In this document: piece after piece, positions 49,744-52,040 of the stretch
How positions within the stretch are numbered: position 1 is the stretch's first letter
How the letters are laid out: each line of letters begins with the position of its first letter
Source: Leptolyngbya sp. SIO1E4
Lineage (GTDB): Bacteria; Cyanobacteriota; Cyanobacteriia; Phormidesmidales; Phormidesmidaceae
Reading direction: 5' to 3'
DNA: 64,000 nt
Assembly (NCBI GenBank): GCA_010672825.2
Contig: JAAHFU020000002.1
Coordinates: 1,500,001 to 1,564,000, forward strand
Translations under genes and position numbers: made by a program
The notes under the pieces: generated by a model
The model's input: the letters and a program-made list of their open reading frames with translations, nothing else
Told to the model about the DNA's origin: nothing
Databases searched by the model: none

Positions 49744-50424
49744 ATGAAAGTACAGCATGTTGCTCAGGCGGCCGGGCAAAGCGATGCCTCCCCATGGGTG
49801 TTAGCGGTTCTTAATGGCAAGGGCGGTGTTGGTAAAACAACGACTGCCGTTAACCTCGCAGCAATTTTGTCCGAATCCTATTCGGTTTTACTGGTGGATG
49901 CCGATCCGCAGGCCTCAGCCACCTGGTGGGTCTCGCGCAGCCCTCAGCCCGTGACGTTTGATATCACTCAGGAGACAGACGCTACACTTCTAGGCAAACT
50001 GAAGAAGATATCTGATTATTCTCTGATTGTGGTAGATACGCCCCCGGCCCTCAATTCGGTAGCGCTCGCAGCGGTGATTCCGGTTGCAGACTACATTTTG
50101 CTGCCCACTCCGCCAGCCCCGATGGATTTAGCAGCGTTGGTGACGACGATTAAATCTGCGATCGCCCCGTCTGGAGTGGCCCATCGGGTGCTGTTAACCA
50201 AGGTGGATTCTCGTAGTTTGGCAGAGGCGATCGAGGCTCAAGCGACGCTCAATAGCTTAGACATTCCTGCCTGTGAGACAATCATTCGCACCTATAAAGC
50301 CCATGAACGGGCTGCCTTGGAGGGGGTTCCCATTACCCGGTGGCGAGGTGCAAACGTCAAAGAAGCGAGGGCCGATTACTGCCGCGTTGCCGACGAAGTA
50401 CAGCAAGACTGGAGACTGCCATGA
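49744..50424 (+). CDS. ParA/MinD-family ATPase, McdA-like
   Basis: A 226-residue cytoplasmic ATPase. The deviant Walker A NGKGGVGKTTTAVNLA has the signature Lys at 26 and the P-loop Lys at 31; Walker A' is LLVDADPQASATWW and Walker B VVDTPPALNS. It is compact, with no N-terminal HTH, so it is not a plasmid-type ParA with autorepression. Such small ParAs position cargo on the nucleoid with a partner protein: chemoreceptors, carboxysomes (McdA) or other bodies. The stop overlaps the next gene's start (ATGA at 50421-50424), so a translationally coupled pair is nearly certain. The partner resembles McdB. No parB or parS is present. The 17-residue leader before the ATPase strand is unusual, but no other ATG is available. 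Confidence 0.9.
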   Translation: MKVQHVAQAAGQSDASPWVLAVLNGKGGVGKTTTAVNLAAILSESYSVLLVDADPQASATWWVSRSPQPVTFDITQETDATLLGKLKKISDYSLIVVDTPPALNSVALAAVIPVADYILLPTPPAPMDLAALVTTIKSAIAPSGVAHRVLLTKVDSRSLAEAIEAQATLNSLDIPACETIIRTYKAHERAALEGVPITRWRGANVKEARADYCRVADEVQQDWRLP

Positions 50425-51062
50425 CTAAGAAAAACCTGTCTGATTTGCTGAAGGAAGAAGCCAATGCCCCAGCAGCTTCCTCAGCAACTTCTCCTCAATC
50501 AGCACCCACTCCAGCGAAATCAAGGGCAGCCAAGAAGACTGCGACATCATCGGCATCGGCCCGCTCTACCAGCCGTCGAGGGCCTACTAAGGCTGACTTA
50601 GAGAAGCAGGTTGCGCAACTTGAAGCAGACCTGAAGGCGTCGGCTGAGCGGGAATTGACGCTGAACAAACAGGTTAAAGGCTTGCAAGATGATCTAGAAA
50701 AGCAGCAAGTGCGTCTGTTTGAGCTCAAGGATGCTCTGGAGCAAGCTCAAGTGAGCGCCAAAACCCACGACGAAACGCTCCAGAAAGTGACAGATGAACT
50801 GGCCGAAGCCAAGCAAGTAATCCTCAAAATGACCGCTGCAGCTGAAAAAGCTGCGGCTTCCCCGCCTGCCCAACAACCTCAAAAACCGGCAGAGCCGAGT
50901 CCGGCTGCTAAACCTGCCCTGGCGGTCAAAATGCGCCACGGCGGTGATATTTATCGTGGCAGACGGCTGCCCGCTCACAAAGCGGTTCCGGACTATGCCA
51001 TCGATCATGGTGAAAAGAAGAGTAGTATGCTCTCTGATGAGGAAATTGGCTGGGTAGATTGA
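50421..51062 (+). CDS. Coiled-coil partner of the ParA ATPase, McdB-like
   Basis: A 213-residue protein whose ATG shares four bases with the ParA stop. The N terminus (about 1-55) is basic, Ala/Ser/Thr/Pro-rich and looks disordered; residues about 55-140 form a long coiled coil (LEKQVAQLEADLKASAEREL); residues about 140-165 are Ala/Pro-rich; and the C-terminal 40 residues (from VKMRHGGDIYRGRRLPAHKA to SMLSDEEIGWVD) look conserved, with a single Trp, the only one in the protein, at residue 211. This plan matches McdB proteins, which have a disordered basic N terminus, a Gln-rich coiled coil and an invariant C-terminal Trp, and which undergo condensation and bind carboxysomes. Homology to McdB is inferred from plan and context, not alignment. 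Confidence 0.72.
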   Translation: MTKKNLSDLLKEEANAPAASSATSPQSAPTPAKSRAAKKTATSSASARSTSRRGPTKADLEKQVAQLEADLKASAERELTLNKQVKGLQDDLEKQQVRLFELKDALEQAQVSAKTHDETLQKVTDELAEAKQVILKMTAAAEKAAASPPAQQPQKPAEPSPAAKPALAVKMRHGGDIYRGRRLPAHKAVPDYAIDHGEKKSSMLSDEEIGWVD

Positions 51063-51373: not shown

Positions 51374-51700
51374 ATGAAAAGGTTTATTGTAATGGGTGTC
51401 GCTGTTGCCTCATCCTTAGCCTGGCCCAGTTCTATAGCAATAGCATCGGATAGTTCAGACTTAGAGGCCACGCAGTCTCAAGCCTGCCCTATGATGCTGC
51501 ATGAAGAGGCAATGGGTGTAGATGCAGAAACATTGCCGGTTCCTTTTTTACCTGACGATGCTTTAGAAGATGTGCAGTCGATTTTGGAGCTGTGTACTTC
51601 AGGATCCTATGTAGATTCACGCTCCAACCCACTCCCGTCTCCGTCCAGGTTGCAGCTAGAGCAGCCCGATAGTTTAACGCTCTTTGAGACCCCGTTGTAA
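51374..51700 (+). CDS. Small exported hypothetical protein (108 aa)
   Basis: A 108-residue protein with a signal peptide (about 1-24, IVMGVAVASSLAWPSSIAIA, cleavage near IAIASD). The mature part is acidic, Leu- and Pro-rich, with two Cys residues in ACPMMLHEEAM and LELCTSGSY. There is no recognised domain. The start is well supported by AGGAGG seven bases upstream. It is followed after 50 bases by a two-helix membrane protein and then by livH. Whether these belong together is unclear. I do not recognise the family; a lineage-specific periplasmic protein is likely. Confidence 0.7.
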   Translation: MKRFIVMGVAVASSLAWPSSIAIASDSSDLEATQSQACPMMLHEEAMGVDAETLPVPFLPDDALEDVQSILELCTSGSYVDSRSNPLPSPSRLQLEQPDSLTLFETPL

Positions 51701-51749: not shown

Positions 51750-52040
51750 ATGGGAAAGATGACGTTGGCGTTTGTCGTTGTGCTGCCTGGCGTGGTCGGT
51801 GTTGTGGTGTTTGCCTATTTCGCCCTAATTGATTGGGAGGCTCTGCAAGCGGCTTATCAGGAATTGGAGTTAGCGGTGGAACAGTCGGCTGATCTCAATA
51901 TTTTGTTTCCCCGAGCGACGCAGCAGAATATTCACCGCATCAATCTATTTGCGGAAGGGGTCTGGACTCTGTTGAGCGCAATTCTGGTAGCGATTGGGCT
52001 GCAAGGTATCTGTACTGGGCCTCGCCGCAGTCGGGGCTGA
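51750..52040 (+). CDS. Small two-helix membrane protein (96 aa)
   Basis: A 96-residue protein with two hydrophobic stretches: MTLAFVVVLPGVVGVVVFAYF (about 4-24) and LFAEGVWTLLSAILVAIGLQ (about 66-85). The loop between them is acidic and helical (LQAAYQELELAVEQSADLNI), and the short tail is basic (PRRSRG). A GGGGAAG-like ribosome site precedes ATG 51750. I do not recognise it. The plan, an acidic loop between two helices, suits a small inner-membrane accessory protein. The livH gene starts 94 bases further on and could be expressed from the same transcript, but no function can be assigned. Confidence 0.6.
   Translation: MGKMTLAFVVVLPGVVGVVVFAYFALIDWEALQAAYQELELAVEQSADLNILFPRATQQNIHRINLFAEGVWTLLSAILVAIGLQGICTGPRRSRG

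What the first reader, a model, noticed from the sequence alone, without database searches (positions are those of the whole stretch)
49744..51062. ParA ATPase translationally coupled to a McdB-like coiled-coil partner
A short ParA with the signature-Lys Walker A (KGGVGKTT) overlaps by ATGA with a gene for a protein that is basic and disordered at its N terminus, coiled-coil in the middle, and has its only Trp third from the end. McdB proteins share this plan, including the invariant C-terminal Trp, and position carboxysomes with McdA. No parB, parS or shell genes are nearby, so the cargo could be carboxysomes or something else. The same window encodes a Rubisco activase with the carboxysome-targeting domain.
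Basis: partly seen in the sequence, partly recalled or inferred. Interest (0 to 1): 0.7.

Follow-up and report, generated by a model that had tools for sequence, protein, structure and literature searches.

The report
Carboxysome-positioning gene pair (McdAB type 2)
This is very probably the two-gene system that cyanobacteria use to space out their carbon-fixing compartments; it is a known kind, but close relatives on plasmids suggest that it may once have been a plasmid-sorting machine that was given a new cargo.

Summary
A 226-aa ParA (KGGVGKTT) overlaps by ATGA a 213-aa partner: short N-terminal peptide, disordered arms, one 89-residue helix, only Trp third from the end. All sequence features of published beta-McdAB type 2 that I tested were met except a glutamine-rich centre (inconclusive). 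The ATPase has an orthologue in 163 of 290 genomes of the class and in none of the 43 with alpha-carboxysomes. In 70 of 82 distinct fetched loci a downstream partner ends in Trp; of nine genomes where the script called no true partner, eight have a Trp-ending McdB, seven of them elsewhere in the genome. In the probable Gloeobacter kilaueensis, whose McdB is published as carboxysome-binding, the orthologous pair lies beside rbcL-ccm. Most likely it positions carboxysomes: an ordinary member of a known kind. Two additions: (1) this genome also has a type-1-family McdA, with a Trp-less, plasmid-like partner; (2) plasmids of Thermus and cyanobacteria carry ParAs 54-65% identical, whose partners share McdB's N-terminal peptide but end in another, probably DNA-binding, module. 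With actinobacterial plasmids as outgroup, chromosomal McdA is one clade inside a plasmid grade, but the rooting is unsure.

The parts
49744..50424 (+). mcdA (type 2): ParA/MinD-family ATPase, 226 aa
   Evidence: (CbiA, AAA_31); orthologue in 163 of 290 genomes of the class
49819..49842 (+). deviant Walker A box KGGVGKTT with signature Lys
   Evidence: read; separates it from type 1 McdA (SGGQGKT)
50421..51062 (+). mcdB (type 2): partner/adaptor protein, 213 aa, ATGA overlap with mcdA
50421..50468 (+). N-terminal peptide MTKKNLSDLLKEEANA, probable McdA-contacting and ATPase-activating segment
   Evidence: M1 and D8 invariant, L9, L10 and E13 nearly invariant in 30 McdBs; shared with plasmid partners; role inferred from PMC12204374 (passages)
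50589..50855 (+). central helix (residues 57-145), predicted; probable coiled coil for oligomerisation
   Evidence: AlphaFold2
51027..51059 (+). C-terminal acidic tail MLSDEEIGWVD with the only Trp (W211, 51051-51053): probable carboxysome-binding motif
   Evidence: role inferred from PMC11321042

Best explanation
The pair is a beta-McdAB type 2 system. McdA-ATP dimers would coat the nucleoid; McdB would bind the carboxysome surface through its oligomerising helix and its Trp tail, touch McdA with its N-terminal peptide, trigger ATP hydrolysis and release McdA from DNA, so that carboxysomes move by a Brownian ratchet towards more McdA and become evenly spaced and inherited. Shown here: gene anatomy, family membership by sequence, orthology, conservation of the two contact segments, linkage to shell genes in some relatives. 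Inferred from studied relatives: DNA binding, ATPase stimulation, carboxysome binding, positioning.
For: Sequence features of the published type (passages). Orthologue in 163 of 290 genomes, a single match in all but six of them, none in the 43 with alpha-carboxysomal CsoSCA. Trp-ending downstream partner in 70 of 82 distinct loci and in 63 of 80 named loci, a set that overlaps the first. Of nine genomes in which the script called no true partner, eight hold a McdB ending in GWFD. Shell genes within about 7 kb in 5 of 70 genus representatives, among them a ccm operon directly beside mcdA (L122), and within 6 kb in 25 of 80 named loci, mostly Nostocales. In L147 (contig of 4,724,791 bases, the size I recall for Gloeobacter kilaueensis JS1) the McdA is 62% identical and the pair lies about 0.5 kb from rbcL, in one cluster with rbcXS and ccmKLMN, as published for that species, whose McdB colocalised with S. 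elongatus carboxysomes (PMC6328274 section 15).
Against: No functional data for this protein. ParA identity alone is not specific: Thermus plasmid ParAs are 60-65% identical over what aligns. The published beta-McdB type 2 sequence set (MacCready 2020) was not held, so no direct comparison was made. The central glutamine-rich region is weak (10 Gln in residues 57-145). In this genome the pair is far from ccm and rbc genes, and shell genes were seen near the pair in only 5 of 70 genus representatives. 84 of the 247 genomes without CsoSCA lack the orthologue too; I did not find out what positions their carboxysomes. The alpha-carboxysome group is one family code, so it is one evolutionary contrast, not 43.
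Confidence: 0.9

Rival explanations
1. A plasmid- or chromosome-partition pair (ParA plus DNA-binding partner) left in the chromosome.
For: NCBIfam's best hit is the ParA_partition model, below its cut-off (121 against 180 bits); Thermus, Nostoc, Geminocystis and Oscillatoria plasmids carry ParAs 54-65% identical whose partners share the N-terminal peptide.
Against: The partner has no DNA-binding domain by Pfam above cut-off and no compact domain in the model; in the 56-row tree the chromosomal McdAs are one clade apart from the plasmid ones (99/96); no ParB_N match and no parS-like site in the window.
Confidence: 0.04
2. It positions a different cargo (another protein assembly) and only resembles McdAB.
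For: Not near ccm or rbc genes here; PMC8262871 (passages) notes McdB-like proteins with a C-terminal aromatic residue at other BMC operons; one of the genome's seven BMC-domain matches is a lone gene that I could not assign (C2:1136579, L143).
Against: The other six BMC-domain matches lie in the ccm operon or in a ccmK3K4-like tandem; orthologues of the pair sit beside ccm or rbc genes in some relatives; absent from the 43 alpha-carboxysome genomes.
Confidence: 0.03
3. The type-1-family McdA on contig C3 (G000:C3:99991-100743) does the carboxysome work and the window pair is redundant.
For: The C3 ATPase is 55% identical to the McdA of an S. elongatus-like genome and has the SGGQGKT box; 48 of the 70 genomes with such an ATPase also have the type 2 orthologue.
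Against: Its 148-aa partner ends RLKGQ, and none of the called partners in L234-L247 ends in Trp either; the same ATPase kind is on cyanobacterial plasmids, and the solved structures 6NON/6NOO/6NOP belong to it, which the literature links to a plasmid-encoded pair of PCC 7424.
Confidence: 0.03

Closest known systems
beta-McdAB type 2 (cyanobacteria; Gloeobacter kilaueensis, Synechococcus sp. PCC 7002)
   Same: Signature Lys, no mid-protein extension, mcdB directly downstream, central helix predicted, disordered arms, charged N terminus, single C-terminal Trp in an acidic tail; McdA 62% identical to that of the probable G. kilaueensis contig.
   Different: Not beside rbc or ccm; glutamine content of the helix modest. 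No difference in kind seen. That G. kilaueensis counts as type 2 is my reading of its sequence; PCC 7002 is named so in PMC8262871 but was not compared.
beta-McdAB type 1 (Synechococcus elongatus PCC 7942)
   Same: Would work by the same published ratchet; partner with C-terminal Trp.
   Different: Type 1 McdA has SGGQGKT without the signature Lys (PMC9178275 Table 1, passage; found in L205); the window's McdA aligns with it significantly only over 74 residues around the P-loop at 39%, and the McdB is a different protein.
alpha-McdAB (Halothiobacillus neapolitanus)
   Same: Signature-Lys McdA; N-terminal helix with Lys touching McdA (passages); C-terminal Trp third from the end (PMC11321042).
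   Different: alpha-McdB lacks the coiled coil and ends R(V/I)WPD; this genome has no match to the alpha-carboxysome marker CsoSCA.
Plasmid ParA with small partner (Thermus 19-25 kb plasmids; Nostoc, Geminocystis, Oscillatoria plasmids)
   Same: ParA 54-65% identical; partner begins with a similar peptide (e.g. KRKRLAELVREEAE) and overlaps or abuts parA.
   Different: The partner ends in a conserved ~55-residue segment, probably a ribbon-helix-helix DNA-binding module (Pfam below threshold), in place of coiled coil plus Trp tail.

Membership tests
[quoted passage not shown]
   KGGVGKTT
beta-McdAB type 2 | McdA without large mid-protein extension | tested here: met
   226 aa, near gap-free alignment with nine other short ParAs
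beta-McdAB type 2 | mcdB directly downstream of mcdA | tested here: met
   ATGA overlap
beta-McdAB type 2 | McdB with centrally placed coiled coil | tested here: met
   predicted single helix 57-145; no oligomer was modelled
beta-McdAB type 2 | intrinsically disordered regions and charged N terminus | tested here: met
   arms with low pLDDT; residues 1-56 net +7 (residues 1-20: 3 basic, 3 acidic)
beta-McdAB type 2 | C-terminal Trp with acidic residues in the last ten | tested here: met
   SDEEIGWVD, W211 of 213
beta-McdAB type 2 | central glutamine-rich region | tested here: inconclusive
   10 Gln among 89 residues of the helix
beta-McdAB type 2 | sequence orthology with a member whose McdB binds carboxysomes | tested here: met
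   L147; its naming as G. kilaueensis rests on contig length (recalled) and rbcL adjacency
beta-McdAB type 2 | McdB colocalises with carboxysomes, forms condensates, stimulates McdA | not testable with these tools
   needs experiment
beta-McdAB type 1 | Ser in place of the signature Lys and close identity to S. elongatus McdA | tested here: not met
ParABS / plasmid partition | partner with ParB or other DNA-binding domain | tested here: not met
ParABS / plasmid partition | parS or centromere-like site nearby | tested here: not met

The most novel reading that the evidence does not exclude
Cyanobacterial carboxysome positioning (McdAB type 2) is a domesticated plasmid-partition system. The ATPase and the partner's N-terminal activating peptide were kept; the partner's C-terminal DNA-binding module was replaced by a coiled coil with a Trp tail that grips the carboxysome. 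The same change of cargo module may have happened a second time in the type 1 family, where the S. elongatus-type McdB ends in Trp while partners of ATPases 51-67% identical to its McdA (L230, L234-L247 and others) do not.
Probability: 0.5. Interest if true: 0.62.

Novelty: new member of a known kind. Interest (0 to 1): 0.42.

Why it matters
As an annotation, it gives a likely function to two genes of which Pfam and NCBIfam only recognise a ParA, and shows that of the McdA-family pairs found in this genome only the window pair carries the McdB hallmark. Beyond that, plasmid relatives with the same N-terminal peptide and another cargo module give a testable account of how a cell organelle came to be inherited like a plasmid, and provide natural chimeras for asking which part of a ParA partner decides the cargo.

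Tried and rejected
Chemotaxis, polar or MinD-like partner: no support in the Pfam or NCBIfam hits of the pair. Other ParA-family ATPases of the genome as a second McdAB: PF01656 gave 27 matches, one of them the window gene and two in one reading frame. Twenty had loci; the script parsed 16 and failed on 4; 13 larger stretches, around ten of these twenty and three others, were then read. None of those read has a McdB-like Trp-ending partner; the one apparent case (L166, next gene ends in Trp) reads as a glutaminase, by recall, without a family search. The two ParAs on C4 and C6 that lack the signature Lys have ParB-domain partners. Five ParA-like frames were not followed to a partner: those of L001 and L019 and three long frames without a locus.

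Looking for type 1 McdA in 13 genomes without the orthologue by a loose P0001 search found none; a PF13614 search in two small genomes did. A viral-contig scan found no relative. The Pfam ribbon-helix-helix hit of the Thermus partner is below threshold (E 0.053); the fold is my inference.

The first tree (98 rows) did not finish its careful search. There 13 plasmid ParAs, L087 and one of two paralogue outgroups of this genome (L165) form one set (97), while the other outgroup (L164) attaches among the chromosomal rows; both are extremely long branches. Rooted on L164, the plasmid ParAs would come out of the chromosomal McdAs, the reverse of my reading. In the smaller tree (56 rows chosen by me) I left out both paralogues, the Microbacterium and one Thermus row and about half of the chromosomal rows, and used two actinobacterial plasmid ParAs as outgroup; its bootstrap had not settled. 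Chromosomes outside the cyanobacterial class were not searched for closer relatives, except that the best 80 loci bear cyanobacterial names.

Full report
What is there. ParA, 49744-50424 (226 aa), overlaps by ATGA the gene of a 213-aa protein, 50421-51062. The ParA has the complete deviant Walker A box KGGVGKTT and is short. Pfam gives only general ParA/AAA models for it and sub-threshold coiled-coil-like matches for the partner; NCBIfam's nearest model is ParA_partition, below its cut-off. The partner has a short N-terminal helix (6-14), a disordered basic linker (residues 1-56 net +7), a confident helix at 57-145, a disordered linker and the acidic tail SSMLSDEEIGWVD with the only Trp. The neighbours are an FAD oxidoreductase and a HAD hydrolase upstream and, downstream, two short ORFs without a family and two branched-chain amino-acid permease genes. 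The window's Rubisco activase with an SSU-like domain is about 24 kb away.

How far it is conserved. In 290 genomes of the class the ATPase has a match at E<=1e-45 in 163, a single one in all but six. In 59 relatives the full-length orthologues have 53% identity or more and the other listed matches 44% or less, fragments on small contigs aside; that list was cut. None of the 43 genomes with the alpha-carboxysomal CsoSCA has it (Fisher p 3e-18, but all 43 belong to one family code, so this is one contrast); 84 of the 247 other genomes lack it too. I fetched 82 distinct orthologous loci besides the window, 70 of them one per genus (L102 and L160 are the same place and count once). In 70 of 82 a downstream partner within 1.2 kb has Trp among its last five residues. 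The other twelve: L134 has Tyr in the same place (IGYID); L087 has a partner with ParB_N and HTH_ParB domains; L081 is cut by its contig end; in L158 the script called a wrong gene; eight had no partner called. For these last nine genomes (L158 included) a profile of 30 McdBs (A1) found a McdB ending in GWFD in eight: adjacent in G126 (L158), elsewhere in the genome in the other seven; in G140 none was found. In the 30-row alignment the conserved points are the N-terminal peptide (consensus MTRKRLSDLLREEA), a few helix positions and the Trp, which is replaced in one row, L134.

Link to carboxysomes. In 5 of 70 genus representatives shell genes lie within about 7 kb, where the contig reaches so far (L122, L123, L127, L131, L137); three of the five are in one family. 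In L122 the convergent neighbour is ccmN of a ccm operon. Among the extra loci L147, L150 and L157 show shell genes, and 25 of 80 named loci have shell genes within 6 kb, mostly Nostocales, so not independent. I made no control for how often an unrelated gene would lie so close. L147 is the key: its contig is 4,724,791 bases, the length I recall for Gloeobacter kilaueensis JS1, and mcdA-mcdB lies about 0.5 kb from rbcL, divergently, with rbcX, rbcS and ccmKKLMN beyond. PMC6328274 (section 15) reports that G. [quoted passage not shown] elongatus carboxysomes. The window's McdA is 62% identical to the one in L147.

Comparison with the published types. PMC8262871 (passages) describes beta-McdA type 2 with the signature lysine and without the mid-protein extension, and beta-McdB type 2 with a central coiled coil and a glutamine-rich centre; all McdBs share disordered regions and the invariant C-terminal Trp. 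PMC11321042 (first two of eight parts) shows that the Trp is needed for carboxysome association and that beta-McdB tails are enriched in Asp. PMC12204374 (passages) reports that the first 20 residues of alpha-McdB are necessary and sufficient to bind McdA. The window pair meets the tested points except the glutamine-rich centre, which is inconclusive. I could not read MacCready et al. 2020 or Schumacher et al. 2019.

A second McdA-family gene in the genome. Loci L205 and L206 hold a 152-aa McdB ending in LHGW behind a McdA with SGGQGKT, as published for S. elongatus (W152; SGGQGKT in Table 1 of PMC9178275, passage). With that McdA as query, 70 of 290 genomes match at E<=1e-30, 48 of them genomes with the type 2 orthologue as well, this genome included: G000:C3:99991-100743, 55% identical. 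Its 148-aa partner ends KGQ. Among the 30 loci fetched for this family four have a Trp at the partner's end (L228, L229, L232, L233; the first two are the genomes of L205 and L206), 23 have a partner without it, and three had none called. Related ATPases are on cyanobacterial plasmids, among them Gloeothece citriformis PCC 7424 pP742402; phmmer puts the solved structures 6NON/6NOO/6NOP in this family, and PMC10554743 calls the McdB-like protein of Cyanothece PCC 7424 plasmid-encoded (passage). So the C3 pair looks like a plasmid-type relative rather than a second carboxysome system; its partner has no significant Pfam match. In G054 the ParA closest to type 2 (L087) has a ParB partner and groups with plasmid ParAs, while a Trp-ending partner goes with its type-1 McdA (L233); a detached McdB-like ORF ending FGWVD is also present there (L277).

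Plasmid relatives and a proposal on origin. At E<=1e-25, 60 plasmid records hold a relative of the window's McdA, 33 of them Thermus; the Thermus matches are 60-65% identical, some of them partial, and Geminocystis, Oscillatoria and Nostoc plasmids follow at 54-61%. I fetched 13 such loci. Their partners begin like McdB: a position-specific score built from 69 McdB N termini gives 8.9 to 42.9 for 12 of the 13 plasmid partners and -7.4 for the Arthrobacter one, against a maximum of 5.2 in 1,033 background ORFs not ending in Trp or Tyr; the ParB-type partner of L087 scores 0.4, no more than background, although its start (TQKRDLAELIRGE) looks similar by eye. Twelve of the 13 plasmid partners, by eye, end in or near a common segment (KYLTYVRKE..RL...Q.D.L..L.RKLNR.......ITENTLIR.AVD.LL in Thermus); the Microbacterium one does not. 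A search with a Thermus partner finds this segment on Nostoc, Geminocystis, Oscillatoria and Arthrobacter plasmids among others. It resembles a ribbon-helix-helix domain, but Pfam gives only E 0.053. In a 56-row tree rooted on two actinobacterial plasmid ParAs, 44 chromosomal McdAs are one clade (99/96), Thermus plasmids are its sister (94/88, not a starred branch), and the cyanobacterial plasmid ParAs and L087 lie deeper. These 44 include rows without a neighbouring Trp-ending partner (such as L122 and L110) and the Tyr row L134. In an earlier, unfinished 98-row tree the two paralogue outgroups disagreed, and rooting on one of them (L164) would reverse the direction. The simplest reading remains that type 2 McdAB arose from a plasmid partition pair by exchange of the partner's cargo module, because the plasmid partner type occurs in Thermus, cyanobacteria and actinobacteria. 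Weak points: the root, unsettled bootstraps, the unproven fold, chromosomes outside the class not searched, and possible earlier statements in papers I could not read. Searches of the held library for McdB with ribbon-helix-helix, McdA with plasmid partition, McdB with plasmid-encoded and McdAB with Thermus gave listings (15 of 17 shown) in which I saw no title or abstract start in this sense; of those papers I opened only passages or single sections.

Verdict. The plasmid connection is the part worth following.

Noticed in passing
L162:2992-4206 (G000:C3 about 99,990-101,200): A type-1-family McdA (SGGQGKT, 55% identical to that of an S. elongatus-like genome) with a 148-aa partner that lacks the terminal Trp, in a genome that also has type 2 McdAB.
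   Followed up: partly
L142:3981-4916 (G000:C2 about 369 kb): A second, short CcmM-like protein: hexapeptide-repeat part plus a single RuBisCO-small-like domain, 311 aa, beside the normal CcmM with four such domains.
   Followed up: partly
L134 (G227): A natural McdB with Tyr in place of the Trp called invariant (tail NNQNIGYID).
   Followed up: no
L091, L097, L122, L136, L150, L151, L152 with L272-L275, L278-L280: mcdA and mcdB separated in seven genomes: McdA stands alone and a McdB ending GWFD lies elsewhere; in L122 and L150 the lone mcdA sits convergent to ccmN.
   Followed up: partly
L087, L233, L277 (G054): A ParA close to type 2 McdA paired with a true ParB, a type-1 McdA with a Trp-ending partner, and a detached McdB-like ORF ending FGWVD in one genome.
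   Followed up: partly
L161:3516-5403 and L163:4034-6004 (G000 contigs C4 and C6): Two ParA-ParB pairs whose ParAs also lack the signature Lys (NSGGVGKT, NAGGSGKT); the only ParB_N matches in this genome.
   Followed up: no
L166, L169, L170, L171: Four copies of a ParA-like ATPase of 252-253 aa with RGGTGKSN in place of KGGxGKT, not paired with an obvious partner.
   Followed up: no
L143:5493-5852 (G000:C2:1136579-1136806): A lone gene with one BMC shell domain (119 aa), away from the ccm genes and not assigned here.
   Followed up: no
window 51374-51700 and 51750-52040: Two short ORFs directly downstream without any Pfam match at E 1e-5; the first begins like a secreted protein (by eye).
   Followed up: no
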